Shown piece after piece: positions 21,077-63,765 of a DNA stretch of 64,000 nucleotides; within the stretch, counting starts at the first letter, position 1, and every line of letters begins with the position of its first letter. The stretch is from a virus. A program made the position numbers and the translations under genes. Under the pieces are notes generated by a model that ran no database searches, was not told the DNA's origin, and worked only from the letters and a program-made list of their open reading frames with translations. The DNA lies in the IMG/VR virus record IMGVR_UViG_3300046010_015054, positions 106,106 through 170,105 of that record; one strand, written 5' to 3'.

Positions 21077-21747
21077 TTTTCTTCATTAATTTCTTTAGCG
21101 ATTTCTAAGATAGATTCTTTTAAATCACCATATCCTGAAGATTTGTATTTTCCAGTTGCTTCTTTAGGAGTGCCTAAACCAGGAGCTTCGGTTTGATATC
21201 CAATACCTTTAACACCGAATGCAGCATTTTTCATATAATAAAGACTATCTTTTGCCATGTTTTTTGCTACTATTCCTTTTAACTCGTCAACTGTCTTATC
21301 TTTATTTTTAGGATCTTTCATTTCAGCATAGTATCCTTCTAAGAAGGCTTCGCCGTAAATGTTATCAATATTTTTATAATCAGTATAATCGTATCCTGTT
21401 TCTTTATCTAAATCTTCTACTTCTTTAGAAACTTTTTTATTCTCAGCTTTAGTAGTTTGTTCATCTTTAGGTTTAGGAGCATCTACAGGATTTTCAGCTA
21501 CAGAAAATTCTTCACTTAAGAAGTTGTTAAATGTATTAAATGGGTCGATTGCAGGTTTAGATACAAGACCACCAATCATAGTAGCTTCTGTAATAATGCC
21601 TCTTTGTTTTAGGATAAGAGTAGTCTCACCAAATCCATAATGATTAGGAATTAGATTTGGGAATAATTTTTTGGCGTTTTTTAAGAACACATCTTTGTGC
21701 CCTTTGCCTTCTTTGATCAAATTATATTGATTTTGTAAACTTTTCAT
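21073..21747 (-). CDS. Unknown capsid-region protein (224 aa)
   Basis: No family recognised. The N-terminus (MKSLQNQYNLIKEGKGHKDV) resembles a T4 capsid-targeting peptide ending in an [LI]xE-G protease site. The middle is charged and low-complexity (about residues 85-115, Lys/Glu/Asp-rich). The C-terminal third contains AKDSLYYMKNAAFGVKGIGY and ends in an amphipathic helix. It lies where T4 has the small core proteins gp67 and gp68, between portal and protease genes, and overlaps both neighbours by 4 bases. A prohead core or internal head protein is the best inference. Confidence 0.6.
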   Translation of the reverse strand: MKSLQNQYNLIKEGKGHKDVFLKNAKKLFPNLIPNHYGFGETTLILKQRGIITEATMIGGLVSKPAIDPFNTFNNFLSEEFSVAENPVDAPKPKDEQTTKAENKKVSKEVEDLDKETGYDYTDYKNIDNIYGEAFLEGYYAEMKDPKNKDKTVDELKGIVAKNMAKDSLYYMKNAAFGVKGIGYQTEAPGLGTPKEATGKYKSSGYGDLKESILEIAKEINEEK

Positions 21748-23211: not shown

Positions 23212-25104
23212 TTACTCAGTTAAATTAGATTCATCTAATAATGACTCTTTATTTTTGTCACTTTCAAACACTAATTGTTTAGATAAACTTTCAATTAACG
23301 TTCTGTTTTTAGCGAATACTGATTTAGCATTTTCTAAGGCTAAAGGTGATCCACCTTTAAAATTAGTTCTACCAAATTCTTCTTGGTCGTCAACTTTCAT
23401 TGACTTAACACCTAATCTATCCTTACCAAAATTATCATCTTGAGTATTTCTATCTGATGATTTTTCTTCAGGGCGGCCTAATGGTACTTTTTCATCATAT
23501 CCATCAGGTACTGAGTTAGCTTCATATCTTCCTTTACCATATAAAGAAGCTAAATCGTGTGGGGTACCATAAGATTTACCTGTTTCTAATGGGTCATTAC
23601 CTTCATCAGCAATTTGTTGATTACGGAAAGCACGTTTTTGGTCTTCAATAATAAGATCTCTATATTCATCGAATTGATCTTCACTGAAGTGGAACACATT
23701 ATCGTAAATCCAATCTGTTGGAAGGATTTTACTATCTAAAATATCTTTAGCTAATGCTACTTTTTCTTTTAATAATGCAATTTTTTCCTGATCGTAAATA
23801 ATTGAAGGAGTAGTTAAACTTAACTCGAAATTAGTTAATTGTTCTCCATCATATCCTTGTGTGTATAAGTGTACTAAACCAATTTTATACAATTCAGATA
23901 ATACAATCTTTTGGATACGTTCAATTGTACGAGCAAATCGAATATCTTCAGCAGCTAATGTAGCTTTACCTGTCAAATCTTTCTCGTAACCCATAAACGC
24001 TTTAGGTACCTTAAGAGCAGCAAATAATTTGTCTCTTAAGTAAGCAACGTCTTCAATACCATTGTATTCTAGACCTTTTGTAGTATCGATTTTAGTTGCC
24101 GTGTCATTACCTCTTACTGGAATGAAGAAATCCTCAAGGATATTCTGCATGTTATATTTTAAGTTATATTCACCAGTATTGGGATCCATTAACGGAGTTT
24201 TCTTCATATTGTTGATTGTCTTCTGCATGAAAGCATCAACTTCTTGTGGTGGGATGTTACCTACGTTAATATAGAAAACACGTTTTTCTGGGGCGCGAGC
24301 AATTCTGTGAATAAGCATCGCATCTTCCATTAACACATATTGCTTAAATAAACGACGTGCTGGTTCTAAGTAAGAACGACCATAAGGAAGATAATTTACA
24401 TCCGTAATTAAACGAAAGTGAGCAATCTCATAATTGTCAAATTTAATTTGATTAGCCGTATCTATTTTTTCATTTGGAGTAGCATAGTAACCAGAACCTC
24501 CAGTAAAGTAACCATCTGGGTTGTAGAGGAATTCTACTTTAGATGGGTTTTTAGGGTCAAAATTTTCTTTTCTTTGAATGTGGTAAGCAGTATAAGGAAT
24601 AACATTGTATACTCCGAATTTTTCTGCAATTTCTAATTTGATAAAGAAATCACCATACTTACACATTTGACGAATCCAAGACCATAGGTTGAATTCGATA
24701 TTTAAAACATCATAGAATAAATTGTATAAAGTTTTTTGAATATCTTCATCACTACTTCTAATTTGAAGTACCTCACCCATATCATTTTTTAGGGTACATT
24801 CGTCCGCTACAATATCAAGAGCAGAAGCAATAATTGCATCTGTATCCATCTGATCGTAATCACCATATAGATAAGTTCTATAATATTGATAGTTAAGGTT
24901 AAATTGTTGTGCTAAAAGAGATGTAGCTGCGGGGTTGGTATAAATTTTACCAAATCTATCTACAACTGAGTTGGTTTGGAATTCACCTGTGGTTTGAATT
25001 CTATCTGGGTCAATAACTTTTAATTGACCATCTCCTTCACTACGAATAATAACGTCCGTAGAGAAGAGTCTTCTTAACCTTGAAAATATATCAGTTTGTG
25101 CCAT
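23212..25104 (-). CDS. 20: Portal vertex protein (gp20-like)
   Basis: The dodecameric portal is the head's DNA gate, terminase dock and neck attachment site. Strong T4 gp20 signatures are present: APEKRVFYINVGNIPPQEVD (about residues 268-287), MQNILEDFFIPVRGND, then DVAYLRDKLFAALKVPKAFM and TLAAEDIRFARTIERIQKIV. The 630-residue length exceeds T4 gp20 (524); the excess is a charged C-terminal tail (about 510-630) rich in Asp, Lys and Asn. The gene follows the terminase stop with only 12 bases between them, bearing an ATATTTAT motif. Sheath and tube genes (18 and 19), which T4 has between 17 and 20, are absent here. Confidence 0.95.
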   Translation of the reverse strand: MAQTDIFSRLRRLFSTDVIIRSEGDGQLKVIDPDRIQTTGEFQTNSVVDRFGKIYTNPAATSLLAQQFNLNYQYYRTYLYGDYDQMDTDAIIASALDIVADECTLKNDMGEVLQIRSSDEDIQKTLYNLFYDVLNIEFNLWSWIRQMCKYGDFFIKLEIAEKFGVYNVIPYTAYHIQRKENFDPKNPSKVEFLYNPDGYFTGGSGYYATPNEKIDTANQIKFDNYEIAHFRLITDVNYLPYGRSYLEPARRLFKQYVLMEDAMLIHRIARAPEKRVFYINVGNIPPQEVDAFMQKTINNMKKTPLMDPNTGEYNLKYNMQNILEDFFIPVRGNDTATKIDTTKGLEYNGIEDVAYLRDKLFAALKVPKAFMGYEKDLTGKATLAAEDIRFARTIERIQKIVLSELYKIGLVHLYTQGYDGEQLTNFELSLTTPSIIYDQEKIALLKEKVALAKDILDSKILPTDWIYDNVFHFSEDQFDEYRDLIIEDQKRAFRNQQIADEGNDPLETGKSYGTPHDLASLYGKGRYEANSVPDGYDEKVPLGRPEEKSSDRNTQDDNFGKDRLGVKSMKVDDQEEFGRTNFKGGSPLALENAKSVFAKNRTLIESLSKQLVFESDKNKESLLDESNLTE

Positions 25105-25109
25105 ATCTA

Positions 25110-25117
25110 ATAAATAT
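25110..25117 (-). promoter_or_regulatory. ATATTTAT motif before portal gene
   Basis: Overlaps the last A of the terminase TAA stop; 5 bases before the portal ATG. Confidence 0.5.
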
Positions 25118-26685
25118 TATAACAACCATCTTAAATCCTCATTTTGCCCATTTACTTTATGGTTATAAGGATTTTCAATTTGACGGCCGTATGCGAATTG
25201 TGGTTGATCTCTTCTTTGAATGTTATTTAAAGCACTTCGAGTTAGATCTAAGTTTTGTTGTTGGAATTTAAGTGAGGTATCTCTTAAGAACATACCAATG
25301 CCAAATGGCATTACTAAGTCATCATTATACCCTGTTTGAGCTTCGGGACGACCATTCTTCCAAACAAATACTTTCATTTCTTCAAGTAAACGCTTTGAAC
25401 GAATAGTTACACTTTTATCTCCCACGAACTCTCTAAATTTATTAACTACTAATGGTCGGGTTCTCATTGACATTGTAAAACCAGGAACCATATTTGAGTC
25501 ATTTTCATATGATTTAAGATACGACTCAGCTGTTAATTGATCACTCTTAGGTGAGTGATAGAGGTTTCTATATCCTCTTTCTATTACGGCTTCAATAGTT
25601 GCCCAACCAATTGAAGCGTTTTCAATAACAAGAAGTGCGTTATTGTATTCAGTAGCAATTGCTACTAAAAGAAAACCAAATTCTCTAGTAGGTAATTGAC
25701 CCTTATATTCTGCTACTTGTATATTAGTTTCAATATCAATTACGTGGAATGTAGAAAAGTCTTTACCATCACCACGAGCAACGTCTGCTAATACCATATA
25801 ATCTCTAGAATAATCAGCAGGTTCCCAAACCCATAAATTTTGGTCTACACCTCGTCTTTCAACTGGATCTTTAATAGTAGTTTCTTTAATAAATTCTAAC
25901 CACTCTGGGTAGAATACTACATCACCTGAAGTGCTAAAGTCACAGTCACATTCTTGTGCTGCTAATCTAGGGTCACCAAGTAATTCGTCTTGTCGTTTTC
26001 GCCAAGCTTCATCTCGTTCAGGGTGTACAAACCAAGGTAATTTGATAGGTAAGAAGTCGTTCTCTCCCGATTCCGCTCTCACCCATGTCTGGTGGAACCA
26101 GTTTCCAGTTCCATAAGGGGTAGAAAGTACTATTGCTCCACCACCCGTTGCTAGTGTTTGTTGTGCTGATGCCCATATTTCTCCAATTCCTTCAATAAAC
26201 GCAGCCTCGTCAATCAACAGAAGAGATACTGCTTCTGATCGACCTGCATCACTTGATGCTGAAGTTGCTTTAATTTGAGATCCGTTACTTAATCGAAGGG
26301 ATAATTTATTGTTTTCGTCTGCTGTTATTTTTAACCATGAAGGTAGATTATCAAACATGAATTTTACTTTCGTAACCATGTTACGAGCAGTTTCCTGTTT
26401 AGTTGCGATACAGAGTACGTTTTTATCTTTATGGAATAACATTAACCATAAAGAATAACCTGCGGCTAAGGTTGAAATGCCTAACTGACGAGATTTAAGT
26501 ACAACTGAGTATGGGTTATCTCTCCAAAGGTGTAATGCCTTTTCTTGGAAAGGATATAAATTAAAATACACCCTACCTCTTTGTGGGTGTTGAATATAAC
26601 AATATTTACGCATAAAGTGTGCTGGGTCAGTAGCACACTTAATATATTCTTGTTGGATTATTTGTCTTAAATTACTATCACTCAT
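25117..26685 (-). CDS. 17: Terminase large subunit (gp17-like)
   Basis: This packaging motor has an N-terminal ATPase and a C-terminal RNase-H-fold nuclease. The Walker A region is the T4-type variant VVLKSRQLGISTLAA (about residues 60-74), Walker B is SLLLIDEAAFIEG (about 154-166), and the coupling motif is IVLSTPYGTGNWFHQTW. Nuclease acidic residues lie in VLADVARGDGKDFSTFHVID, ALLVIENASIGWATI and YNDDLVMPFGIGMFLRD. The 522-residue length is slightly shorter than T4 gp17 (610). No small terminase (gp16) is recognisable upstream; spanin-like genes lie there instead. It starts 4 bases after the spanin-like stop. Confidence 0.96.
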   Translation of the reverse strand: MSDSNLRQIIQQEYIKCATDPAHFMRKYCYIQHPQRGRVYFNLYPFQEKALHLWRDNPYSVVLKSRQLGISTLAAGYSLWLMLFHKDKNVLCIATKQETARNMVTKVKFMFDNLPSWLKITADENNKLSLRLSNGSQIKATSASSDAGRSEAVSLLLIDEAAFIEGIGEIWASAQQTLATGGGAIVLSTPYGTGNWFHQTWVRAESGENDFLPIKLPWFVHPERDEAWRKRQDELLGDPRLAAQECDCDFSTSGDVVFYPEWLEFIKETTIKDPVERRGVDQNLWVWEPADYSRDYMVLADVARGDGKDFSTFHVIDIETNIQVAEYKGQLPTREFGFLLVAIATEYNNALLVIENASIGWATIEAVIERGYRNLYHSPKSDQLTAESYLKSYENDSNMVPGFTMSMRTRPLVVNKFREFVGDKSVTIRSKRLLEEMKVFVWKNGRPEAQTGYNDDLVMPFGIGMFLRDTSLKFQQQNLDLTRSALNNIQRRDQPQFAYGRQIENPYNHKVNGQNEDLRWLL

Positions 26686-31009: not shown

Positions 31010-31657
31010 TTACCAGAATCCTGAGAAGTTTGATTTGAGTCCTAAAAGTTTAGCATAACGTGGTAAACGGCAGCTCCAATATGAGGCTTTTGTTCTATCT
31101 TTTTTATTGGGGCAATCGTGTCGAGCAGAAAACGCTTTACGTGCTTGTGGGTTATTTATCTTAGCTGATAAACCTGTTGTATCACCAAATGATACTTTTT
31201 TAATTCCGCCACCTGGTTTTCTTACATAAACGTAGAATTTTTTAGAGCCACCACGTTTTGGTTTACCAATTGGAGGGTTTTTCTTTTTCTTATCAGCCTC
31301 GTTTATTTCTTCTATTTCTTCAAAGATAAAATCTAAAGGAACTCTTTGACCATTATATTCTCCAAAATGTCCTAAGTCTGTTTCTATAAGAATATCTAAA
31401 TCATCACCTTTTACTTCTAAAAGATCACGAGAGTAAAGCATTCTTGCTTCTTCCCACAATTTAAAATATTTCTCGGACCCGGCACGAAATAGATGTTCTG
31501 TAAGCGGTTTTTTATTGTCTATATGGTAAAGTATACCTTCAGACAGCCCAGTGCGTGCTACGAGTTGTTCATTTAACATAGGAGCTTTAGAGCAACCCCC
31601 ACAACCACAACTGCAGCTTTTCTGTTCTGAGATTTTTTGTTTATCCATGGCACTCAT
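31010..31657 (-). CDS. Cys-rich hypothetical protein with conserved C-terminal domain (215 aa)
   Basis: The N-terminus has a Cys cluster, SCSCGCGGCSKAP (about residues 14-26), a probable metal site. The middle is acidic (EVKGDDLDILIETD) and then switches to a Lys-rich linker (ADKKKKNPPIGKPKRGGSKK). The C-terminal ~70 residues contain VRKPGGGIKKVSFGDTTGLS, then FSARHDCPNKKDRTKASYWS with CRLPRY. This 'KKVSFGD ... ARHxCxxKxDxxKAxYWSCRxPR' pattern recurs in T4-like phages of marine bacteria. Function unknown; possibly nucleic-acid binding through a Cys/His site. Preceded by an ATATTTAT motif. Confidence 0.7.
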   Translation of the reverse strand: MSAMDKQKISEQKSCSCGCGGCSKAPMLNEQLVARTGLSEGILYHIDNKKPLTEHLFRAGSEKYFKLWEEARMLYSRDLLEVKGDDLDILIETDLGHFGEYNGQRVPLDFIFEEIEEINEADKKKKNPPIGKPKRGGSKKFYVYVRKPGGGIKKVSFGDTTGLSAKINNPQARKAFSARHDCPNKKDRTKASYWSCRLPRYAKLLGLKSNFSGFW

Positions 31658-33509: not shown

Positions 33510-33973
33510 TATGCAGCTGCTGTTTCTTCACCGGCTGCCGGAGTTTCTATAGATTTTTCAGTAGCAGTTGTAGTAGTTTCGGTTTTAGTTTCAGTTGCTT
33601 CTTCTTTAGTTCCGTATCTTAAAATACGAGAAATAGCATTTGTTCCATTTTGTAACTCGTTAATGTTTAACAAGTAATATTTTTTACCTTCAATTTGAGC
33701 AATCCAACTCTTAGTAGTGTATATAAGATAGAATGTTTGCCCGTTTTTAAGGTTTATACGAAACGTAGTAGGCTTAGGAGCAACCCAATCGATGCTATCG
33801 ACAAAAACTTTAAAGTCTGCTGTCATAAGCTTTACTAAAATGTCCTTTAATTCAGGAAATTTAGTCAGCTCGTCAGAAGCTGTTTCGCCATAGTCTGAGA
33901 TAGCTCCTTTGGGCTTTCCGTAGACTTGGCGAGCAACTACTTTAATTTTTTCTTTAAGTTCTTCAGCTGTCAT
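33509..33973 (-). CDS. Hypothetical protein (154 aa) with Thr/Ala-rich tail
   Basis: The folded N-terminal ~120 residues contain KTFRINLKNGQTFYL-type strands (PTTFRINLKNGQTFYLIYTT, about residues 67-86) and YYLLNINELQNGTNAISRIL. The last ~30 residues are a low-complexity Thr/Glu/Ala tail (KTETTTTATEKSIETPAAGE). The start overlaps the previous stop by one base. No domain recognised; the tail suggests a flexible linker or interaction region. Confidence 0.65.
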   Translation of the reverse strand: MTAEELKEKIKVVARQVYGKPKGAISDYGETASDELTKFPELKDILVKLMTADFKVFVDSIDWVAPKPTTFRINLKNGQTFYLIYTTKSWIAQIEGKKYYLLNINELQNGTNAISRILRYGTKEEATETKTETTTTATEKSIETPAAGEETAAA

Positions 33974-35712
33974 TATTTTTTCTGTTTAGCAGTTGGGCCT
34001 TTACCTCCACCTTTTGCTTTGTATGCTGCTACAGCACCGGCAATTGCTTTGGCTGCTTTTTCAGATTTACCTTGACCTTTGATTTTTTTAACTAATTTCT
34101 CGTATGATTCTTCCAAAGACATTCTATTATAAGTTTCTTGATCTTCGTATCTAAAACGATCTCCATCTTTCATAGGACCTATAATATCATTAAATTTAGG
34201 TAAACCATATGTCCAAGTGTGGTCAATGATTGGGTGGTCTTTATAAAGATTATCTTCAGGACCTAATATTTTAGCTAACTTATAACCAGCAGCTTCCATT
34301 TTTGAGATAAATGAATCTAAATTTTCATCTTTAATAGCACCTTTTGTACTTACAGCTAAAAAACTTTCATTTACGTTAGATTCTTCCATTTTACCTCCAG
34401 GAATCTTTTTAGACCAGTAGCCTTTAGGTAAACCTTCTTCTAAGTATGGTTTTAAGATTTTTTTAGCAGCTTCCATATTACCATCATTCATAGCTTTTCT
34501 AGCTTGTTTGATGTTGTTTTGGTCGTCGGCTGATTTGTTTTTGTTTAATGCTTTTTGAATAGCAGCTGCTAGTTTTTCTTCGCCACTAATTTTTTCTTCA
34601 TCAATAACGTCTTCGGCAGAAGCAACACCTACCATAGCATCGATTTCTGGTTCTTTTAGTTCGAAATCAAGATAGTGTTTAGCTTTACTCATTTTAGAAG
34701 CAGCATCTGTGATCATAGCTTGCCACCATGCTGGGAAGTCTACTTCACCCATACCTTCAAATTGATCTACCATCTGGTAAAGCTCCATAGCATATTTTCC
34801 AATACGATATAGTTCGCCCTTGATCATGTGTGGTTCGTCGTCTTCGTGGCCTAAGTCAAGATCTTCAGAAACTACGGATTGATAAGGAATAGAACCTCCT
34901 GATTTTAATTTAAGATATATACCATCAATTCCGGCTATTTCATCTTCAACTTCACCTTTGGGAGAACTCCATTTGATTTTATCTCCTACTTTATATTTAG
35001 ACATATTTTTTTCTTCTAAAGGTCTTCCTTCGTCATCATATGACATAAAAATTTCATCTTCGTCATCTAATTGAGCTTGGTCTGGGTCGTATTTTCCTTC
35101 CATAGGTGTTACTTTAGCTCCTACTCTTTTTAATTCTTCTTCTTCTTGTGGGGTTAAAGCTTGCACTTCAGAATCACCAGTAGGACCAGTGATTTTTCTA
35201 AGTCCTTTAGTTTCTTTAACGCCTTTTTTAGCTATTGCTTTTTCAATAGCTTCACCACGTTTTTCTTCATAAGAAGAAAGTTCGCCGTCTTTATTTAAGT
35301 CGGCTTTTTTAGGGTTTTTTAGCTCTTCGTCTAAATCAGCTACTAACTTTTTAACGTCAGGACCATACCCTAACGCCTTAGCTTTTTTATACAAGTCTTC
35401 GATAGCGTCCATCATAGCAGAAGCGTCCTGGAGATCTCTCATTGCTTCGTAATCTTCAGGTTCAAAGTATTCCATTCTTTCTTCTTTGACTCCTTCTTTT
35501 TTCATTAAAGCTGCTTTAACAGCTTCTTTAATTCTATTTTCGTTCATTTCTTTGACTTGTTTTTTAGCACGTTTTACAGCTGTTCCGTACATAACGCTTT
35601 CAGCATCCTTACCATAACGCTTGACAAATTCGCGTTTATTGGATTTAAGATCTTTTACGATCTCTTCCTTACGCTTTTCTTCAGCTTTGGTAAGACTGCG
35701 TTCGTTGAGCAT
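33973..35712 (-). CDS. Large charged hypothetical protein (579 aa), likely virion-associated
   Basis: Mosaic of short conserved phage-type modules in charged linker. The N-terminus is Lys/Glu helix. Around residues 435-450 is LPKGYWSKKIPGGKMEES. The C-terminus is YEKLVKKIKGQGKSEKAAKA followed by a Lys/Gly-rich KAKGGGKGPTAKQKK tail. A K-I-x-GQGKSxKAAKxIAGAxAAxKxKGxGxGPTxKQ-type tail recurs in hypothetical proteins of T4-like marine phages. An EF-hand-like DLNKDGELSSYEE lies near residue 140, a possible Ca2+ loop. It starts three bases after the stop of the H1-like gene. Function unknown; internal or accessory virion protein is inferred from its neighbourhood. Confidence 0.6.
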   Translation of the reverse strand: MLNERSLTKAEEKRKEEIVKDLKSNKREFVKRYGKDAESVMYGTAVKRAKKQVKEMNENRIKEAVKAALMKKEGVKEERMEYFEPEDYEAMRDLQDASAMMDAIEDLYKKAKALGYGPDVKKLVADLDEELKNPKKADLNKDGELSSYEEKRGEAIEKAIAKKGVKETKGLRKITGPTGDSEVQALTPQEEEELKRVGAKVTPMEGKYDPDQAQLDDEDEIFMSYDDEGRPLEEKNMSKYKVGDKIKWSSPKGEVEDEIAGIDGIYLKLKSGGSIPYQSVVSEDLDLGHEDDEPHMIKGELYRIGKYAMELYQMVDQFEGMGEVDFPAWWQAMITDAASKMSKAKHYLDFELKEPEIDAMVGVASAEDVIDEEKISGEEKLAAAIQKALNKNKSADDQNNIKQARKAMNDGNMEAAKKILKPYLEEGLPKGYWSKKIPGGKMEESNVNESFLAVSTKGAIKDENLDSFISKMEAAGYKLAKILGPEDNLYKDHPIIDHTWTYGLPKFNDIIGPMKDGDRFRYEDQETYNRMSLEESYEKLVKKIKGQGKSEKAAKAIAGAVAAYKAKGGGKGPTAKQKK

Positions 35713-35715
35713 AGT

Positions 35716-35889
35716 TTATTTTGCTTTATCTTCAGCTACAGAAGCTTGACGATATTCAGTTACAAGTTTTTTAATTTCACCTAAAACTTTACGTGCACGT
35801 CCGTGTGCTGCTTTAGATTTACCTGCGTGTTCTGCTTTAAAAGTTTCGTATAAAGCTTCAATTTTTTCGAAAATTTCAGTTGTGTTCAT
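35716..35889 (-). CDS. Histone H1-like (Hc1-type) small DNA-binding protein
   Basis: The 57-residue protein reads MNTTEIFEKIEALYETFKAE, then HAGKSKAAHGRARKVLGEIK and a KLVTEYRQASVAEDKAK end. The pattern of one acidic-amphipathic helix, a short 'GxSKAAxGRARKxLxEIKKLxxEYR' core and a short tail resembles the ~55-60-residue histone H1-like proteins common in Bacteroidota (core 'GNKAAGxRARKxxxEIxKLxKEFR'). Such proteins bind DNA and condense it. A phage copy could compact DNA in the head or act on the host nucleoid. A T4-type TATAAATA lies 9 bases upstream. Recognition is by eye from family memory. Confidence 0.7.
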   Translation of the reverse strand: MNTTEIFEKIEALYETFKAEHAGKSKAAHGRARKVLGEIKKLVTEYRQASVAEDKAK

Positions 35890-35908: not shown

Positions 35909-37309
35909 TTATTTAATTATTTTTTTGAATAATGGAAACATTGATTCATTCATTGAAGATTTTTTATCATCTTTCATGTCTTTTTCTAAAGCGTCAATAT
36001 GTTCAGCATCATCAGCTTCAGCATCTTTGTAGTATTCTTTTTTACCTTCACCTAATCCAGTCATAGCTACTGATAAGATATCATCATAGTTATTTTTAAA
36101 GAAAGTGTAGTCTAATTGTCTAGGGAATGATCTGGGCATATCTAAGTATGATTGTGCTAATTCCTCAACATCATAAGATCCTTCATCCATTAGGTGTTGA
36201 GCATAATCACGAATCATTTCTTCGGTTGCTTCATATTCTAACCCCTTACCAATATTTTTTACTAAATCACCTTCAGCTTCTTTAACTACGAAATCACGAG
36301 TAAAGAAGGTAATTGTGTTACCAATCTGCTGGATGAGTTTTTCGTTGCCTATTTCTTGAGCAGCTTGTAGAGCTTGGTCAAGGTGACCTTGAATTTCTTT
36401 TTCTGTATCTGTAAGAGTAGGTTCTTCAGCTGCAGGTGCTGCTGGTTCGTCAACATTAACGTCAACTTTTTCTACGTCTGTTACTTCTTCTTCTGCTTCT
36501 TCTAAACCCTCATAGAAATCAGAGTATAATTTAGATAAACCTACATCAGGATCGCCAAATTCCATATCTGAATCTTCAGTAATTTCTTCTGCTAATTCGT
36601 TTAAGATATTTTGACGAATCATTTCTTTTAATTCTTCTTTTGTCATTTTATTTGATTTCATTTCTTTAATCATCTTGCCATCTACTTTAGTTACTTTACT
36701 TAAAGGCTTTTTAAATGTTGTTGAGCCGTCGATAGTAACAAAAACAGATTCTCTGTCAGGTGCTATGTTTTTAACGTAATAAGTTTTATTATCACCTACA
36801 AACACTAATCTAGTGTCTTTACCAATATTATAGGTTTTGATCATTTTTTCTACATCCATACCTGAAATAGCTTCTTCTAGATTATCTTCTTGTGTTGAGA
36901 ATATTACTTCACCTTCAGGAGTTACTGAACCCACTTTAGCACTTTTATTAGCTAAATTGCGAATTACAAAAAAGTCTTCATCAAGACCTTCTTCTGACTT
37001 GATAATAAAAGAGCCACCAGCGTAATCACCTAAGTAATTTTCAATACCAAATCCGTTAATATCTTTCCAATCTTCACCTGGAGTATTAGGTCCTGCTTTT
37101 GTATCAAGATCAAAGTAAGCTCCTCTAGAGTCCATTTGTAATGATCCAGGTTGAACCGAATATATAAGACCTAAATCGTCTGTTTCAGTAAAATGATCAG
37201 CTACTTTTTGAGCAACTTTATCCGGGTTTTTAGGGTATAATGAGATAAGCTCAATTGCTTCAGTAAGTCTATTTTTAGACAAATAATTTGTTAGATTAAA
37301 GTTGTTCAT
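35909..37309 (-). CDS. Hypothetical protein with capsid-targeting-like N-terminus (466 aa)
   Basis: Starts MNNFNLTNYLSKNRLTEAIE, an amphipathic ~17-residue peptide ending LTE-A, matching the [LI]xE site used by T4 prohead protease. The body is acidic with several modules: DEDFFVIRNLANKSAKVGSV with EGEVIF (about 130-155), VEKVDVNVDEPAAPAAEEPT (about 295-315) as a linker, and a helical C-terminal part with EGSYDVEELAQSYLDMPRSF. An internal NKMTKEELKEMIRQNILNEL again resembles the targeting peptides. Likely an internal head or virion protein by inference; no enzyme motif seen. Confidence 0.6.
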   Translation of the reverse strand: MNNFNLTNYLSKNRLTEAIELISLYPKNPDKVAQKVADHFTETDDLGLIYSVQPGSLQMDSRGAYFDLDTKAGPNTPGEDWKDINGFGIENYLGDYAGGSFIIKSEEGLDEDFFVIRNLANKSAKVGSVTPEGEVIFSTQEDNLEEAISGMDVEKMIKTYNIGKDTRLVFVGDNKTYYVKNIAPDRESVFVTIDGSTTFKKPLSKVTKVDGKMIKEMKSNKMTKEELKEMIRQNILNELAEEITEDSDMEFGDPDVGLSKLYSDFYEGLEEAEEEVTDVEKVDVNVDEPAAPAAEEPTLTDTEKEIQGHLDQALQAAQEIGNEKLIQQIGNTITFFTRDFVVKEAEGDLVKNIGKGLEYEATEEMIRDYAQHLMDEGSYDVEELAQSYLDMPRSFPRQLDYTFFKNNYDDILSVAMTGLGEGKKEYYKDAEADDAEHIDALEKDMKDDKKSSMNESMFPLFKKIIK

Positions 37310-37698
37310 TGCTTTAATTTTTTAATAAGTTCAGCAGCTGTTTTTTTCTTATCAGCAACTTCGTTTTTAGCAGTACGGAAAGCTTCCATAGCATCCTTCA
37401 TTTCTTTAATAGAATCTTGATAAGCTTTTAACGCCTCAGTTCCCGCTCTACGTGCATCAGACTTTTGCTTATAAACACCTAAGATGTTTTTAATTTCTAA
37501 GCCACCTTTAATTTGAAGAGCAAATTCTGGAAGAGTTAATTCGTATACTACGTCTTCCATTTCTGAGTTTTGGTCTGGTTTTTCAACGATAAAGAATTTA
37601 CCAATCTCGTCTACAGGAATACTTTGCACTTCGGCAATTTGCCCTGCTTCCTCTTCGATGGCTTCTTTGATGAGTTGTTTAAAGTCTGATAGTTTCAT
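37306..37698 (-). CDS. Hypothetical protein with MKxxDFKxxIKEA N-terminus (130 aa)
   Basis: The N-terminus MKLSDFKQLIKEAIEEEAGQ closely parallels the start of an unrelated protein at 59.1-59.5 kb (MKSTDFKKIIKEAVKEAIQE), and both end in IKE-A. The middle has VYELTLPEFALQIKGGLEIK beta strands, and the C-terminus is a Lys/Ala coiled coil. Overlaps the next gene by 4 bases. No family recognised; the N-terminal signature suggests delivery into the prohead. Confidence 0.6.
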   Translation of the reverse strand: MKLSDFKQLIKEAIEEEAGQIAEVQSIPVDEIGKFFIVEKPDQNSEMEDVVYELTLPEFALQIKGGLEIKNILGVYKQKSDARRAGTEALKAYQDSIKEMKDAMEAFRTAKNEVADKKKTAAELIKKLKQ

Positions 37699-37703
37699 AT
37701 GTG

Positions 37704-37711
37704 ATAAATAT
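37704..37711 (-). promoter_or_regulatory. ATATTTAT motif before IKEA-start gene
   Basis: Sense CATATTTATCAC, 5 bases before the ATG and two bases past the preceding stop. Confidence 0.45.
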
Positions 37712-37712
37712 G

Positions 37713-38006
37713 TTATTTTTTGGACTGATATGTTCCTTTTTTGTATTTTGCTTTTTCTGTGTTAGAAACAAATTGTTTACCTTTACGTGATGCTGCTGCT
37801 TTTTTACGAGATGTTTTAGCACGTTCGGCTTTAGATAACGATTGAGCTTTTTTACGAGGTAAGCAACGTGTAGTTGCATCACCTTTTTTCATAGTACCAC
37901 AAGGGCCTGTAATATTACCTTGAGTATCAATACGCACCCAGTCCTCTTTTTTGAACCAGTCGCGTAGTGACTCTGAAATTAGCTCTTGTAGACGTTCGTG
38001 GGTCAT
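37713..38006 (-). CDS. Basic Cys-containing hypothetical protein (97 aa)
   Basis: MTHERLQELISESLRDWFKK is followed by DWVRIDTQGNITGPCGTMKK and DATTRCLPRKKAQSLSKAER; the last 40 residues are Lys/Arg/Ala-rich. The 'WVRIDTxGxIxGPCG...TRCLPRxKAxSLSKAERA' pattern recurs as a small unnamed protein in marine T4-like phages (from memory). The basic tail suggests DNA binding. Overlaps the upstream stop by one base. The N-terminus (LISE-S) also fits the protease-site pattern weakly. Confidence 0.7.
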   Translation of the reverse strand: MTHERLQELISESLRDWFKKEDWVRIDTQGNITGPCGTMKKGDATTRCLPRKKAQSLSKAERAKTSRKKAAASRKGKQFVSNTEKAKYKKGTYQSKK

Positions 38007-38446
38007 TATTTTTCTCCTTTACGTTCTTGCCATTCGTAAGAGATAGTATCTTTTACAATAGGACCACCTTTAGCCCATGTTCTACAAGTACGAGCTGAAT
38101 GGCATTTAAAACTATGCATCCAGCAATATCCTAATCTTCCATCATCATCTGATAGAGGACCAGGCATACAATCTTCCATTCTAGGAGAAATATCAAAAGC
38201 AGCACAATTACCACAAAGTGATTGTTTAGCTGCTTCAACTGTTGTATCCCAATGTTCAGCTAACTCGTCCCAGAAATCTCCAGGTTCGTCAACATTTAAA
38301 GGACCATATTTGATATAATCTGCTTTAATAGCTGAGTCCCTGTTTTGAGTATTTAACTCAAGGTCTTGAGTTGGGAGAGGACAAGCCATTAAAGCTTCAT
38401 AAAGCTTACCTTCTTGTAAGTATCTTTTTATATCAAAATTATCCAT
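38006..38446 (-). CDS. Cys-rich protein with capsid-targeting-like start (146 aa)
   Basis: The N-terminus MDNFDIKRYLQEGKLYEALM ends in LYE-A. After an acidic linker, a compact Cys/His region follows: SLCGNCAAFDISPRMEDCMP (about residues 76-95), GYCWMHSFKCHSARTCRTWA (about 106-125). CxxC plus four more Cys resembles HiPIP-like or zinc-knuckle folds and could hold an iron-sulfur cluster or zinc. Function unknown. It is tightly packed with neighbours (1-base overlaps). Confidence 0.7.
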   Translation of the reverse strand: MDNFDIKRYLQEGKLYEALMACPLPTQDLELNTQNRDSAIKADYIKYGPLNVDEPGDFWDELAEHWDTTVEAAKQSLCGNCAAFDISPRMEDCMPGPLSDDDGRLGYCWMHSFKCHSARTCRTWAKGGPIVKDTISYEWQERKGEK

Positions 38447-40485
38447 TATTTTTTCTTTTTAGATCTACCAGACATTTGCCCTTTACATACTTTAACAGCG
38501 CGACCTGAGAGATAAGCGGATGATTTTTCACCAGCTGCTTTTCTTCTTTTAATATATGCTTTACCAGCAGGGCAAAGTTCCTCATATATCATTCCTTCAC
38601 CTAATTTAATAGTTTCTTGAAGTTTTTTCTTTAATTCTGGGATAAGTCCTTTCTGGATGAATTGATTGAGATTTATAGTTCTAGTTTCTCCATCTTCATC
38701 TTGAATGGTTATGGTATATTCGTCAGAATCTAATACTTTATATCTGTTACCATAATAATTTACCATTTTACCTTTTAATTTAGAGAAAGTTTCAGCCGAA
38801 ATTCTATCTCCAAATCCTTTAGTTACCTCATCCATTCTACGTCTCATATAGTCAGATTGTTCAAATTCATCCTCACTATAATCACCAGAACGTCTTTTCA
38901 TGTAGTCGGTTTCTTCGTAATCTTCTTCTTCAAAATCGTCTTCATCAAAATCACTACTGTCGAGGACTTCAATATCTTGAGACATTAAATCGTAGTAAAA
39001 ATCGTAAATACCATTTAAGTTGTTAGAGGCGTAAACATTTGAACCATATAGTTCAATAGGAAAATCACTATATTGATCTCTAAATATATCTAATGCTTTA
39101 CGAGCATCACGAACTGATACTTCAATAAAGTATCTTTCGTCTAATTGACCACCCATTGCTTCACCTACTTTTTTATATCCTACTTCTGAATATTCGTTGT
39201 AGGTGCTGTTTTTATCCTCTTCAAGATTATATGAATCTAATTCGTCTAAAAGTTCTCTTAAAGTATTAACATTAATCATTTGGATTTTATCCAAAAGTGA
39301 TTCGTCACCTAATTTTGCTCTTAAATCTGCAAATTGTTTAGGAGCGGGACCAAATTTAGGATTACTTATTCTTGGATCGTTGGTAGCTTCGTCTAAATTT
39401 TCTTCTTGATTTTCTTCGTATACACTCTTAAACTGAGCAAATGTGCGAACTGGTTCATCGTATAATTCTACAGTTTCGTATTCTGTATTAATACGAATTT
39501 CTGAACCTTGGAAGGTCATATCTAAAATAAGAGTGTCGTAGTTTTTACCAATTGCGGTTCCACCGACAATTCTTTTACCTACTTTTTCAGCCCAACCCGC
39601 TACAGTTTTAACTAAAGATGAAACACCTTTTCTTTTAGCAAATTCAGCAATATTTGAAGGAACATAAGCTTCATTTAATTCACCTTCTTTCATTGATGTT
39701 TTTACAACACTTTTAAGATTAGCTTTTTCGATGAAATCTTCAAATTTAGCATTCAATTCCTCTGATTGATTTTCAGGTTTATAAATTGCTGTAAATGGTT
39801 GAGATAGACTTTTAGGATCCATATCATATTCCACACCCATATTATCTAATTGGCTTTGGAGGAATTTGATCATATTTTTTGCTGCTTCTTGATAACCCCA
39901 TTTTCCACCTTCTTTTACTGAGTTATCTGTAGATAAAAGACGCATATTATCTATATCGGTAATAGATTCTTTACCGGTTATAGTATTTTTAACTTTCATC
40001 TTATCATCTTGAATAGCTAATACTTTGAAATCGAAGCCTTGAACTGTATTACCTACAATATCACCTACTTTAATAGGTCTTTTATTTTTTCTTGAGTATT
40101 CAGCACTAACTTCTTCTAAACCTGTTTCTCTACGATATTGAGCTGCGTCTTTTTCCATTTCGTCTTTCGTCATTTGATTTAAAAATGCTGCTTTAGGGTC
40201 TTCAGGTAGAGAACTAATTTCACCTTTTTTAAATTTTTCAAGATAATATGCTTTAGCTTGATCATCTAAAGACATCATTTCTTCTAAAGGTTTAGAAAAA
40301 AATTCTTGTATTTTATTTAAATTTTCCATTGTATAATCTTCTTCTACTCTTGCAGTCTTTAAAAATGATTTAACTAAGCTTAAGTCATCGTAATCCCATT
40401 CTCTTTCAGGTTTTCTGAAGAGATAGTTGTCTGTTTGTTTTAAACGGGATAAAGCTTTTTTTATTTTAAGTCCTAAAGGTTCCAT
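38446..40485 (-). CDS. Large mosaic hypothetical protein (679 aa)
   Basis: Charged multi-module protein. A KOW/SH3-like segment, KRPIKVGDIVGNTVQGFDFK (about residues 115-135), leads to VLAIQDDKMKVKNTITGKES. A second similar one, SKLKGKMVNYYGNRYKVLDS, lies at about 575-595 and continues into a YTITIQDEDGETRTINL strand. Both read as small beta barrels. Between them is an acidic, Tyr-rich block with repeats of ESDYMxRR type (DYMKRRSGDYSEDEFEQSDY). The C-terminus CPAGKAYIKRRKAAGEKSSA, then YLSGRAVKVCKGQ, is a recurring tail in phage hypotheticals. Probable virion-internal protein; no enzyme motif seen. Confidence 0.6.
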   Translation of the reverse strand: MEPLGLKIKKALSRLKQTDNYLFRKPEREWDYDDLSLVKSFLKTARVEEDYTMENLNKIQEFFSKPLEEMMSLDDQAKAYYLEKFKKGEISSLPEDPKAAFLNQMTKDEMEKDAAQYRRETGLEEVSAEYSRKNKRPIKVGDIVGNTVQGFDFKVLAIQDDKMKVKNTITGKESITDIDNMRLLSTDNSVKEGGKWGYQEAAKNMIKFLQSQLDNMGVEYDMDPKSLSQPFTAIYKPENQSEELNAKFEDFIEKANLKSVVKTSMKEGELNEAYVPSNIAEFAKRKGVSSLVKTVAGWAEKVGKRIVGGTAIGKNYDTLILDMTFQGSEIRINTEYETVELYDEPVRTFAQFKSVYEENQEENLDEATNDPRISNPKFGPAPKQFADLRAKLGDESLLDKIQMINVNTLRELLDELDSYNLEEDKNSTYNEYSEVGYKKVGEAMGGQLDERYFIEVSVRDARKALDIFRDQYSDFPIELYGSNVYASNNLNGIYDFYYDLMSQDIEVLDSSDFDEDDFEEEDYEETDYMKRRSGDYSEDEFEQSDYMRRRMDEVTKGFGDRISAETFSKLKGKMVNYYGNRYKVLDSDEYTITIQDEDGETRTINLNQFIQKGLIPELKKKLQETIKLGEGMIYEELCPAGKAYIKRRKAAGEKSSAYLSGRAVKVCKGQMSGRSKKKK

Positions 40486-40494
40486 ATAATATTT

Positions 40495-41070
40495 TTAATC
40501 AAGTGAGCCTGCTCCTCTTGGGTCTGGTCCTGATATGCTTGTTGGTTCTTTATCTTTCCAAATTGGTTCCCAAGTAGCATTATTACCTTGTTGAAAAACT
40601 TTAATTCCAGCTAAATCATCTCTATACACAGATACAAATCCTCTAATTTCATCAGCTGCTAAACTTGTTGCTAATCCTTGAAGTGTTTTAGTTTTTCTTA
40701 AACCTCTAATATTAGGACTTATATAATTTTCTAAATCATATATGAGATCTGAGAGTTCACCTATAGCTCTACCTTCTTGGTTAGGTAATTCTCTATCATT
40801 TTTCCAAGTATATTCAGCTTCATTTAAAGTCTCATTCATACCTAACTCAGCATTTAAAACATTCATAAATGCTCCAAAATTTTGAGAGCCGTATTCTTCT
40901 TTTAAAATTTTAGCTACGGCTAAAGCAAAATCCATGTAAGATAGATTTTTATCTACTACATCGATTGCTTTATTGATTTCTGTGGCTACTTGATCAGCTG
41001 TGCTTTCTAGTAGATTTGCCTCTGCTAGGTATCTTTGTTTGTTCCACTTCGCTACGTCGAAATTGTTCAT
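40495..41070 (-). CDS. Hypothetical protein with capsid-targeting-like start (191 aa)
   Basis: Starts MNNFDVAKWNKQRYLAEANL, ending LAE-A, very like the starts of the proteins at 35.9-37.3 and 38.0-38.4 kb (MxNFDxxxYLxxxxLxEA). Contains YMDFALAVAKILKEEYGSQN (about residues 44-63) and an Arg/Leu-rich helix (SPNIRGLRKTKTLQGLATSL), with a Gly/Pro tail (ISGPDPRGAGSLD). Overlaps the upstream small gene by 77 bases in another frame. No family recognised; inferred internal head protein. Confidence 0.6.
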   Translation of the reverse strand: MNNFDVAKWNKQRYLAEANLLESTADQVATEINKAIDVVDKNLSYMDFALAVAKILKEEYGSQNFGAFMNVLNAELGMNETLNEAEYTWKNDRELPNQEGRAIGELSDLIYDLENYISPNIRGLRKTKTLQGLATSLAADEIRGFVSVYRDDLAGIKVFQQGNNATWEPIWKDKEPTSISGPDPRGAGSLD

Positions 41071-41828: not shown

Positions 41829-43073
41829 CTATTTTTTTATGCTATCTGTCCATTTACGAAGCATGATGTTTCCTTTTTCGTAAGCATCTCTTTCGATTTG
41901 CTCTAAATAATCATCTTCGTGAGTATTTGTAGTTTTTATTTTACCAGTTCCAACTTCACCATTTAAATTTTGTTCGTGATGCACCATCTCGTGGGCGAAT
42001 GAACGTAATATATCTTTTGGGTGTCTCCCCATTGTATATAAAACAATTGTAGCATTTGCAGGATCATAGAAGGCAGTCATGCCTAAAGGATCTTTTGCAT
42101 TTACTTCATCATCTTCTATAAATTTTACACTAGGGAAAGGTTTAATATTCATCCCATTCTCGTACATGTATTGTGAGAGTTCTGGGATAAATTTTTTATA
42201 TCCTGATCCATAAGGTACTGCTGATCCTTCAGCTTCTTTAAGTTTTTGAAGGCGCTGTGTTTTTTCCTTAGATGCTTCTTTACGTGTTTCTATATAATCT
42301 AAACCACGCTTTAAACGGGCTTTAGTCTCAGGGTCTTTAGCGTTTTGGTAAGCCGCTCTAACACGCTGGTGAATCAAGTTAATAACCTGAGACTGGCGAG
42401 CGTGTGATTTGGCTTTAAAAGAAGCTGAGTTAAGTGTATCTACAATATCTTCTTTTGTTTTAAATTTTATAGAGACAGTGTCTGATGGGTCTTCATCTGT
42501 ATAGAGTCTACGACCTGATCCTTTTGGTTTTTTGCCTGTACCAGTTTTAGGATCTGCTTCTTCTAAACCCATAGCTAACTCACGAGCAAATTGACTTAAA
42601 CCAAATGGATCTTTTACTTTACCACTTGGGTTATTTTGCTTTTTGTAATCATCCATATTTTTATCGGATGTTTTTTGGCCATCTTCTTCTAATTCTTTAG
42701 TCTCAATCTTCTTTAATTTAGAATAGTAGTTAGGATCTTCATAAATGTGATCCATAGCAATTTCGCGAGCTATACTTTTGTCTGTAGTATGCTCCATTTC
42801 TGTTTTGATACCCTGATCTAATTTTTTCTTTATAGATTGAAGGGGCATTTTATGATATTTTGCTAAATCTTGTAAAGTTAAACCTTTAGCTTTTCCACCG
42901 GGTATTTTTTCTTCTTTCATTTGACTTTTTTTCCAAGCTTCTAATTTTGCGGGTTCATATTTCATGGTTTGATTGTCTAAACCACAATTATGACATAAAT
43001 AAGGATCAGGATCTGTTAAAGTATCTGTTTGCCAAGGATGACCACAATTAAAACAAGTAACATTTACTATCAT
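41829..43073 (-). CDS. Multidomain zinc metallopeptidase-like protein (414 aa)
   Basis: Three parts. (1) N-terminal zinc ribbon: CFNCGHPW...YLCHNCG (about residues 7-31). (2) A helical module EEKIPGGKAKGLTLQDLAKY with EHTTDKSIAREIAMDHIYED, resembling phage DUF5661-type domains (name from memory). (3) A C-terminal gluzincin-like peptidase: HEMVHHEQ with HExxH at 361-365, and a downstream EQIERDAYEKGN offering the third glutamate ligand. Between (2) and (3) is a basic helical linker. HExxH phage proteins can be virion peptidases or act on host proteins. It overlaps the kinase gene by 4 bases. Role unknown, but the catalytic motif is complete. Confidence 0.75.
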   Translation of the reverse strand: MIVNVTCFNCGHPWQTDTLTDPDPYLCHNCGLDNQTMKYEPAKLEAWKKSQMKEEKIPGGKAKGLTLQDLAKYHKMPLQSIKKKLDQGIKTEMEHTTDKSIAREIAMDHIYEDPNYYSKLKKIETKELEEDGQKTSDKNMDDYKKQNNPSGKVKDPFGLSQFARELAMGLEEADPKTGTGKKPKGSGRRLYTDEDPSDTVSIKFKTKEDIVDTLNSASFKAKSHARQSQVINLIHQRVRAAYQNAKDPETKARLKRGLDYIETRKEASKEKTQRLQKLKEAEGSAVPYGSGYKKFIPELSQYMYENGMNIKPFPSVKFIEDDEVNAKDPLGMTAFYDPANATIVLYTMGRHPKDILRSFAHEMVHHEQNLNGEVGTGKIKTTNTHEDDYLEQIERDAYEKGNIMLRKWTDSIKK

Positions 43074-43873
43074 GATTGAAGGAAATCTTTTATTTTAGTC
43101 TTTACTTCTTCTTTAGATACAGAATTATCTAAAATATCTTGACTTTTCATGTTTGCGTTCCAATCCTCTATAAATGCCTTATTTTCAGCATCTATTTTAT
43201 CTTCATACGCTTGATCCTTTGCTGATTTGGGTGTTGAGTCTTTAGGTGCAAACTGGTCTACGTATAATTTTTTTATGTCTTCGTAAGATGATAATGTAAA
43301 AGGTTTATCATCGTTTACAACCGAGATAAAATTGTCGCCAAAAATATCTCTATACTTGGCGTAATTTTTTGTGACATTTGCCCAAGTTTTAAGGACAATG
43401 TCTGGTGGAAGGCTTCTTTCAAGGCCTTTAGATTTGTCAAAACGTTTTTCATTTCTTTTAAGTGCTTTTTTAAGTGAAGCGTGAACGTACACCATTAAAA
43501 CATCGTAACCAGCTAACATGAGTCTATTTCTAAGTTCAGCTACATTTTTAAGTGAACCAGAAGCATTGTCTAATACAATGTTTTCTTTATTATCTATAGC
43601 TTGATTTAAAGCTTCATTGTAGGTTTTGATAGCCTGTTGCATACCTGTTGCGGCTTTGCTTCTAGACTCTTTACCTGCATTCTTTAAATCGAAAGAAACT
43701 CCTGCATTTTTTAGATTTTCTTTATAGTAATCGTCTATGTTTAATACTTTTAAGTTGAAATCTTTTATATAATCGTCAACTAAAGAACTCTTCCCTGCAC
43801 CCGGAGCACCAGCAAGTATGATGGCTTTGGGTCTAGAGGAGAGTTCTTCCAGTAATTGAACAAGACTGATCAT
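43070..43873 (-). CDS. Zeta-toxin-like P-loop kinase
   Basis: Walker A AGAPGAGKSS (residues 21-30), then VLNIDDYYKENL with the zeta/AAA_33-type acidic substrate motif, KENIVLDNASGSLKNVAELR (about 94-113; D at the Walker-B-like strand), and YDVLMVYVHASLKKALKRNE with LID arginines. Such kinases phosphorylate nucleotide sugars (zeta toxin, UDP-GlcNAc), polynucleotide ends, or other small molecules; the substrate is not readable here. The C-terminal ~70 residues are charged helix. Starts MISLVQLLEELSS, also a helix with LLE. No antitoxin-like neighbour was recognised. Confidence 0.75.
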   Translation of the reverse strand: MISLVQLLEELSSRPKAIILAGAPGAGKSSLVDDYIKDFNLKVLNIDDYYKENLKNAGVSFDLKNAGKESRSKAATGMQQAIKTYNEALNQAIDNKENIVLDNASGSLKNVAELRNRLMLAGYDVLMVYVHASLKKALKRNEKRFDKSKGLERSLPPDIVLKTWANVTKNYAKYRDIFGDNFISVVNDDKPFTLSSYEDIKKLYVDQFAPKDSTPKSAKDQAYEDKIDAENKAFIEDWNANMKSQDILDNSVSKEEVKTKIKDFLQS

Positions 43874-55331: not shown

Positions 55332-55683
55332 TTTGAGATGTAGTGGTTTGAAGATCAGTTAATTGTTGTAGTATATCTAAGTTTTCTTGTCTAAGATCTG
55401 TAATCTCGTCAATTAAAGCTTGGATTTGATCGTCTACAATATTTGATGCTCCAATATATTCTTGACTAGTTTTTATTAAATATTCGTGTGAGTTTGTAAC
55501 TCCAAATTTAGGAATATCGAAGAATAAAGCTTGATAATAAGTGAAAAATTCATCAACAGAAGGAAGAACACTACCAGTTTCAGCAGTAGTTGTAACTAAC
55601 TGCGTAAAACTAGTGTTAATGGTTCTTTCATATTGAGTTTTAGAAAAAACCTGCTTATTAAGATTTACTCTTTCTTGGCTCAT
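55324..55683 (-). CDS. Small baseplate-region protein (119 aa)
   Basis: Helical protein with a C-terminal coiled coil (DQIQALIDEITDLRQENLDI). The N-terminal half contains FFTYYQALFFDIPKFGVTNS, aromatic-rich. It overlaps the upstream gene by 4 bases and the downstream giant gene by 8, so all three are coupled. It could be an assembly chaperone or a small structural subunit for the 1679-residue protein; no family recognised. Confidence 0.6.
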   Translation of the reverse strand: MSQERVNLNKQVFSKTQYERTINTSFTQLVTTTAETGSVLPSVDEFFTYYQALFFDIPKFGVTNSHEYLIKTSQEYIGASNIVDDQIQALIDEITDLRQENLDILQQLTDLQTTTSQNG

Positions 55684-63759: not shown

Positions 63760-63765
63760 AAAAAC

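What the first reader, a model, noticed from the sequence alone, without database searches (positions are those of the whole stretch)
35909..41070. Candidate capsid-targeting peptides on a cluster of unknown proteins
Starts share a short amphipathic leader ending [LI]xE before A/G/S: MNNFNLTNYLSKNRLTE-A, MKLSDFKQLIKE-A, MDNFDIKRYLQEGKLYE-A, MNNFDVAKWNKQRYLAE-A, plus MTHERLQELISE-S, MKSLQNQYNLIKE-G (21.7 kb) and MKSTDFKKIIKE-A (59.4 kb). T4 internal proteins begin MKTYQEFIAE-A and are cut by gp21 after [LI]xE. So this phage may load a large set of unrelated cargo proteins (Cys-rich, SH3-like, coiled-coil) into the prohead for ejection.
Basis: partly seen in the sequence, partly recalled or inferred. 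Interest (0 to 1): 0.75.

Follow-up and report, generated by a model that had tools for sequence, protein, structure and literature searches.

The report
Prohead-targeting leaders on phage cargo proteins
A group of uncultured phages, probably infecting Bacteroidetes, puts interchangeable short "address labels" ending in a head-protease cutting site on many unrelated proteins, and similar sites sit between modules of longer proteins, so these phages probably pack and trim a large kit of proteins inside their heads to deliver into the host.

Summary
The starts are real and non-random. In the 170-kb phage record, five of six consecutive genes (w35909-41070) begin with a 12-17-residue leader ending [LI]xE before A/S (permutation p about 0.001). 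A looser motif is enriched at residues 8-20 of the cargo region in this phage and three relatives, but not at residues 48-60. Relatives give the strongest evidence. The Cys-rich cargo (38006-38446) keeps its mature part while the leader is replaced wholesale, yet E17 is the only invariant leader residue and L15 is at least 90% conserved. One leader type sits on about 23 unrelated families. The site also marks starts of homologous modules inside multidomain proteins (60% versus 17% background). The phage encodes a T4 gp21-type S77 protease; three phages with a leaderless version of this cargo lack S77. Best reading: T4-type capsid-targeting leaders plus prohead-protease sites loading a modular, polyvalent-protein-like cargo set. 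The 59.4-kb member is not supported; 21.7 kb is more likely a prohead core protein. Two missed cargo genes (31010, 43070) and an internal start in 38446-40485 were added. Virion location, cleavage and ejection are untested.

The parts
38006..38446 (-). Cys-rich, HiPIP-like cargo protein (146 aa); leader MDNFDIKRYLQEGKLYE | ALMACP, leader codons 38396-38446
   Evidence: 30-sequence alignment: E17 invariant, L15 at least 90%, rest of the leader interchangeable; homologues annotated high potential iron-sulfur protein
35909..37309 (-). 466-aa modular cargo; leader MNNFNLTNYLSKNRLTE | A (37259-37309); internal site at E216 (36662-36664) with a homologue junction, and a candidate at E421 (36047-36049)
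37306..37698 (-). 130-aa cargo; leader MKLSDFKQLIKE | A (37663-37698); relatives begin MKLxDLLNE |
   Evidence: model shows the leader as a helix separated by a disordered linker (residues 19-29) from the folded part
37713..38006 (-). 97-aa basic cargo (pI 10.3); leader MTHERLQELISE | S (37971-38006)
   Evidence: leader swapped to MIKLLDILNE|SLRDWF in L220, internal ...E|SLRDWF copies in other loci
40495..41070 (-). 191-aa cargo; leader MNNFDVAKWNKQRYLAE | A (41020-41070); candidate internal site ETLNE|AEYTW at E84 (40819-40821)
   Evidence: an 85-aa relative covers only the first module
38446..40329 (-). multidomain protein, probably starting at an internal ATG (residue 53 of the 679-aa ORF) with leader MENLNKIQEFFSKPLEE (40279-40329); site GMIYE|ELCPAGKAY at E635 (38581-38583); candidates at E272 (39670-39672) and E366 (39388-39390)
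   Evidence: relatives begin MEDLKKIQEFFSKPLKE; purine-rich stretch upstream of the internal ATG; E635 has a homologue junction
41829..43073 (-). 414-aa multidomain protein: Zn-ribbon-like N-terminus, DUF5661, basic module, zincin-like peptidase (HEMVHH); internal sites GLEE|ADPKT (E172, 42558-42560) and KLKE|AEGSA (E280, 42234-42236)
   Evidence: Pfam DUF5661 1.7e-12, Peptidase_M91 weak; standalone relatives carry the same module after a leader, e.g. ...ILSE|NDPKVGTGKKPKGSGRRL
43070..43873 (-). P-loop kinase (zeta-toxin-like); start MISLVQLLE|E, relatives MISLVQLLKE|A/V/I/M
   Evidence: Pfam Zeta_toxin 9.7e-16; shikimate kinase 1.1e-5; relatives
31010..31657 (-). 215-aa protein with a Cys-rich N-terminus; start MSAMDKQKISE|Q, then MLNE|Q and LSE|G; relatives carry several different leaders
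35716..35889 (-). 57-aa histone H1-like (Hc1) protein inside the cargo block; no clear leader
   Evidence: Pfam Hc1 6e-9
33973..35712 (-). 579-aa modular protein of the same block, no N-terminal leader; modules shared with relatives
20468..21076 (-). prohead protease, Peptidase_S77 (T4 gp21 family); candidate sites LIE|T and QLTE|G
   Evidence: Pfam PF03420 7e-29; PHROG head maturation protease 2e-55
19030..20283 (-). probable scaffold/core protein, starts MSNSRELLNE|A; many internal [LI]xE
   Evidence: position between protease and capsid gene; family conserved M[AS]NRDLLKE|A
17269..19008 (-). gp23-like major capsid protein, MSQLQSLLE|S ... KTGLLE|G
   Evidence: Pfam Gp23 3e-74; sites conserved in relatives
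21073..21747 (-). probable prohead core protein (MKSLQNQYNLIKE|G), between portal and protease
   Evidence: conserved through the junction in 71 relatives: not evidence for a separable leader
23212..26685 (-). portal (23212-25104) and large terminase (25117-26685)
   Evidence: PHROG matches

Best explanation
The cluster is the cargo block of a T4-like phage of aquatic bacteria (probably Bacteroidetes). Each leader-bearing cargo protein has a short amphipathic N-terminal leader that docks it on the scaffold core of the prohead. During maturation the phage's S77 protease cuts after [LI]xE, freeing the mature protein inside the head; similar sites between modules probably cut multidomain cargo into smaller units. 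The mature proteins (Cys-rich HiPIP-like protein, P-loop kinase, zincin-like peptidase with a DUF5661 module, basic proteins and others) are then available for ejection with the DNA. Shown by sequence: shared, exchangeable leaders, the conserved junction, the module-boundary sites, the protease gene and the location near the head genes. Inferred: targeting, cleavage, presence in virions and ejection.
For: Leader swap with conserved junction in the Cys-rich family: MDNFDLKKYLAEGKLYE|A, MGIELKKKKQLIERLNKRLLSE|AEM, MINLLDILSE|AEI...FFKFIKE|QDM; E17 invariant in 30 sequences while nothing else in residues 1-16 is. Swap in a second family (MIKLLQLLTE|AKESFE versus MDNFDLRKYLAE|AKKEIE) and a third (37713 family). 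One leader class on 23 unrelated families in the fetched loci. Internal module starts match the standalone leader junction in 121 of 201 cases versus 17.5% background, and site density is about twofold raised at boundaries when the site lies outside the aligned part. A protein in L142 repeats NKLLKE/EGKLLKE between segments. T4 head proteins, including the internal proteins cut by gp21, show the same start pattern, ipI with a 19-residue leader. S77 protease in this genome and in 14 of 15 related records; absent in the 3 phages with leaderless versions of the Cys-rich cargo. Clustering beside the head block in four genomes.
Against: No proteomic or biochemical data. [LI]xE is a short motif and these proteins are rich in E and L. 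Region borders and leader patterns were chosen after looking. The S77 correlation rests on three negatives, and one related record (a 124-kb fragment) lacks a hit. Some cargo-block genes have no leader (33973, 41246, 33509). No sequence match to T4 IPs was found in PHROGs or Pfam.
Confidence: 0.77

Rival explanations
1. The leaders are uncut docking helices: they assemble the proteins into the head or onto another virion part, and the E is a helix-capping or binding residue.
For: The leaders look like amphipathic helices; in the 37306-37698 model the leader helix spans the site. T4 targeting and processing residues are separable, and Asp at position 10 of the IPIII CTS blocks cutting but not targeting (PMC9026906).
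Against: The invariant residue is exactly P1 and the near-invariant one exactly P3 of the gp21 motif, while the rest of the helix varies. The same motif recurs at internal module boundaries, where a docking helix is not needed.
Confidence: 0.12
2. Polyvalent-type cytoplasmic or injected proteins whose modules are released by their own zincin peptidase or a host protease; the N-terminal likeness reflects shuffling of a common start cassette.
For: The domain repertoire (zincin peptidase, ART-like, kinase, GNAT, ParB-like) matches polyvalent proteins, for which zincin processing was proposed (PMC5512222). The cargo block contains a HEMVHH protein.
Against: The sites follow the gp21 motif and occur on the scaffold and capsid genes too; a shared start cassette alone does not explain an invariant E at swapped junctions.
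Confidence: 0.08
3. Chance or composition: short helical starts rich in K, L and E.
For: The motif is short; the 5 own-genome hits outside the window (of 15) do not look like leaders.
Against: Permutation and shuffle tests, replication in three other genomes with no signal at residues 48-60, leader swaps with a fixed junction.
Confidence: 0.03

Closest known systems
T4 internal proteins IPI, IPII, IPIII and Alt with capsid targeting sequences cut by gp21 (PMC9026906)
   Same: Short N-terminal leader (10-19 residues for the IPs) ending [LI]xE, shared by proteins with unrelated mature parts; S77 protease; scaffold and core proteins with the same type of start.
   Different: Many more families per clade, at least four leader types, multidomain cargo with sites between modules, different cargo domains; no sequence homology to T4 IPs found; genes sit in one block beside the head genes.
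Polyvalent proteins (Iyer et al. 2017, PMC5512222)
   Same: Modular cargo predicted to be packaged and injected; zincin peptidase, ART-like, kinase-like, GNAT and ParB-like modules in portal-terminase phages.
   Different: Processing there is assigned mainly to zincin peptidase domains in the protein; here the separate prohead protease and an N-terminal targeting leader are indicated.
Internal head proteins of giant phage SPN3US (PMC10052503)
   Same: Large internal protein load, N-terminal propeptides removed by a prohead protease, sometimes by several cuts.
   Different: Mostly long propeptides (111-254 residues) and a different protease logo; no shared short leader set reported in the passages read.
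Flavobacterium phage immuto (MW353175)
   Same: Closest isolate (capsid protein 54% identical); class A-type leaders on genes 179, 194, 195 and 202, block immediately upstream of terminase.
   Different: Not among the records in which the Cys-rich cargo was found; annotated as hypothetical or by unrelated enzyme names.

Membership tests
T4-type capsid-targeted internal proteins | Short (10-19 aa) N-terminal propeptide ending in the gp21 motif [LI]xE | tested here: met
   12-17 aa leaders with [LI]xE|A/S at 35909, 37306, 37713, 38006, 40495; T4 calibration. The motif is met; actual cleavage is not tested.
T4-type capsid-targeted internal proteins | Same leader on proteins with unrelated mature parts | tested here: met
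   Class A leader on 23 families; cargo families with swapped leaders
T4-type capsid-targeted internal proteins | Genome encodes an S77 (gp21-type) prohead protease | tested here: met
   PF03420 at 20468-21076; co-occurrence
T4-type capsid-targeted internal proteins | Sequence homology of mature parts to T4 IPs | tested here: not met
   No PHROG or Pfam match to T4 internal proteins. T4 IPs themselves differ in their mature parts, so this does not define the mechanism, but the proteins are not filed as IP homologues.
T4-type capsid-targeted internal proteins | Leader sufficient for packaging; cleaved in the mature head; protein ejected | not testable with these tools
   Needs virion proteomics and fusions
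Polyvalent proteins | Several disparate domains in one polypeptide of a portal-terminase phage, often with a zincin peptidase | tested here: met
   41829-43073 (DUF5661 + basic module + HEMVHH); relatives up to 1252 aa with GNAT and cytidylyltransferase-like domains
Polyvalent proteins | Self-processing by zincin peptidase | not testable with these tools
   Site motif points instead to the prohead protease
High potential iron-sulfur protein (HiPIP) for 38006-38446 | HiPIP profile match / fold | tested here: inconclusive
   Homologues are annotated HiPIP but Pfam HIPIP gives only 14.1 bits in one homologue and none in the window protein; model too poor, pLDDT 44; no significant PDB match

The most novel reading that the evidence does not exclude
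A clade of T4-like phages uses the prohead protease as a polyprotein-processing enzyme: exchangeable leaders address dozens of unrelated modules, singly or as chains, into the head, where cuts at [LI]xE release a kit of independent effectors (HiPIP-like, ADP-ribosyltransferase-like, kinase, peptidase, histone-like) for injection. Leaders act as a portable tag, so new cargo is recruited by gaining a leader.
Probability: 0.45. Interest if true: 0.8.

Novelty: new variant of a known kind. Interest (0 to 1): 0.64.

Why it matters
If true, a simple sequence rule (leader + [LI]xE|A in the block beside the terminase) predicts which of the many unknown genes of an abundant aquatic phage group are delivered into the host at the start of infection, and marks module borders inside long unknown proteins. 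It joins two known ideas, T4 capsid targeting and polyvalent proteins, with a testable processing mechanism. It also supplies natural leaders for loading foreign proteins into phage heads.

Tried and rejected
(1) AlphaFold model of the Cys-rich protein: pLDDT 44, not used. (2) PDB profile search for its fold: nothing significant. (3) Fold searches with the 37306-37698 model: no match at E <= 0.001 in PDB or viral models, so 'SH3-like' stays unconfirmed. (4) Within-genome homogenisation of leaders at DNA level: not seen (77.4% within versus 75.7% between contigs, p = 0.2). (5) 59084-59461 as targeted cargo: rejected, since the helix MKxxDFKKIIKEAVREAIQEELKDILLEAVR is conserved straight through the site in 80 relatives and the gene lies among tail/baseplate genes. 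(6) Papers on virion proteomics of the closest isolates: none found in the held library. (7) ART assignment in relatives: only a weak DarT1 match (E = 0.1), kept as 'ART-like'.

Full report
Setting. The window is bases 106106-170105 of a 170,105-bp IMG/VR virus record. The minus strand carries a T4-like head block: large terminase 25117-26685, portal 23212-25104, S77 prohead protease 20468-21076, probable scaffold 19030-20283 and gp23-like major capsid protein 17269-19008. The nearest isolates are Flavobacterium phages 'immuto' (capsid protein 54% identical), so the host is probably a Bacteroidetes bacterium (inference).

Observation. All seven starts are as quoted. Over 219 mechanically called genes of the whole record, [LI]xE[AGS] with E at residues 8-20 occurs in 15 genes (6.2 +/- 2.4 expected from shuffled starts), and five of the six consecutive genes at 35909-41070 have it (permutation p = 0.00095). 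A looser motif is enriched at residues 8-20 of the cargo block in this genome and three others (p = 2e-4, 3e-5, 7e-4, 1.5e-3) and not at residues 48-60. Block borders were drawn after seeing the clustering, so these p-values are optimistic.

Leader swapping. Relatives of the Cys-rich protein 38006-38446 (137 stretches in IMG/VR) keep the mature part, up to 94% identical in other phages, but start in different ways: MDNFDLKKYLAEGKLYE|A, MGIELKKKKQLIERLNKRLLSE|AEM, MINLLDILSE|AEI...FFKFIKE|QDM, MSFNYKKYIQDNPLLKE|Q. In a 30-sequence alignment E17 is invariant and L15 is at least 90% conserved, while no other leader residue is invariant. These are P1 and P3 of the gp21 motif L/I-X-E (PMC9026906). 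A 106-aa family shows MIKLLQLLTE|AKESFE against MDNFDLRKYLAE|AKKEIE; the 37713-38006 family shows MTHERLQELISE|SLRDWF against MIKLLDILNE|SLRDWF. One leader type (M..FDLKKYLAEGKLxE) is on 23 unrelated families in the fetched loci.

Internal sites. Where a module that follows a leader in one phage lies inside a longer protein in another, a [LIVMF]xE lies within three residues of the mapped junction in 121 of 201 cases, against 17.5% at random places of the same proteins. When only junctions outside the aligned part are used, so that homology cannot carry the site along, site density is still about twofold raised around the module start. In the window, 41829-43073 has GLEE|ADPKT and KLKE|AEGSA where standalone relatives have a leader ending ...ILSE|NDPK and similar, and 38446-40485 has MIYE|ELCPAGKAY. 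A protein in L142 repeats NKLLKE/EGKLLKE between segments.

Calibration. T4 ipI, ipII, ipIII, gp21, gp22, gp24 and gp67 begin with the same kind of short stretch ending [LI]xE before A, S or T; ipI has a 19-residue leader. In the present clade the scaffold (M[AS]NRDLLKE|A), capsid protein (MSQVQQLLE|S) and protease (LIE|T) do too. S77 was found in 14 of 15 related IMG/VR records tested, in immuto and in T4, and in none of three phages whose version of the Cys-rich protein has no leader (starts). The one related record without it is a 124-kb fragment.

Location. In immuto, G002 and G001 leader-bearing genes concentrate in one block near terminase, portal and protease (8 of 22, 7 of 28 and 9 of 27 genes against 5/190, 2/167 and 6/203 elsewhere; counted). 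The order primase, cargo, terminase, portal, protease, capsid is the same in immuto and the window (the window primase at 44682-45614 is inferred from its likeness to immuto gene 180).

Corrections to the list. 59084-59461 is conserved straight through the site in 80 relatives and sits among tail/baseplate genes: not supported. 21073-21747 is conserved through the site and lies between portal and protease: probably a core protein. 31010-31657 and 43070-43873 should be added. 38446-40485 probably starts at an internal ATG (40329), giving MENLNKIQEFFSKPLEE, like MEDLKKIQEFFSKPLKE in relatives.

Cargo. In the window: a HiPIP-like Cys-rich protein (annotated HiPIP in homologues, but only a weak Pfam match in one homologue), a zeta-toxin-like P-loop kinase, a protein with DUF5661 and a HEMVHH zincin-like domain, a basic 97-aa protein (pI 10.3) and a histone H1-like protein. 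Relatives add ART-like (weak DarT1 match), kinase-like (by motif only), 5'-nucleotidase, ParB-like and GNAT modules. This resembles the repertoire of polyvalent proteins (PMC5512222).

Mechanism and status. Most likely the leaders dock cargo on the prohead core and the S77 protease cuts leaders and inter-module sites during maturation, leaving free cargo in the head. Targeting, cleavage, presence in virions and ejection are inferred; no experiment on this clade was found. The principle is known from T4, for which it was suggested that the CTS lets T4-like phages incorporate various proteins. What appears new is the scale, the set of leader types, and prohead-protease sites between modules of polyvalent-like cargo.

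Noticed in passing
window 2832-10760: Very long (2642 aa) GTSGTSG-rich, collagen-like repeat protein, with long antisense ORFs (e.g. 3394-9681 +) that are probably spurious; a similar GTSG stretch starts in 16131-16946.
   Followed up: no
window 62974-63939 and record bases 231-1196: The last and first kilobase of the record encode the same two ORF starts: a terminal direct repeat, suggesting a complete, circularly closed or permuted genome.
   Followed up: partly
window 41829-43073; phages OP056089, KF301602: DUF5661-like stretch also found in other phages; in Vibrio phage VPs20 the match lies in a protein annotated DUF2213, which may hint at a head-related role.
   Followed up: partly
L169 (OQ999401) 5659-6393: HiPIP-annotated homologue directly upstream of genes annotated as capsid maturation proteases and major capsid protein in an actinobacterial phage without S77: the Cys-rich protein is head-linked even without the leader.
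   Followed up: partly
record bases 54148-56094 (outside window): ORFs whose starts look like GroEL and GroES, recognised by eye only.
   Followed up: no
L142 1609-2919: 436-aa protein with five NKLLKE/EGKLLKE-type copies spaced along the chain: the clearest candidate polyprotein.
   Followed up: partly
L168 (immuto) genes 183, 189, 194: GenBank names (NadR, TiaS, PduO) may be over-annotation of modular cargo proteins; gene 194 begins with a class A leader, gene 189 with MRLLELLRE|A.
   Followed up: partly
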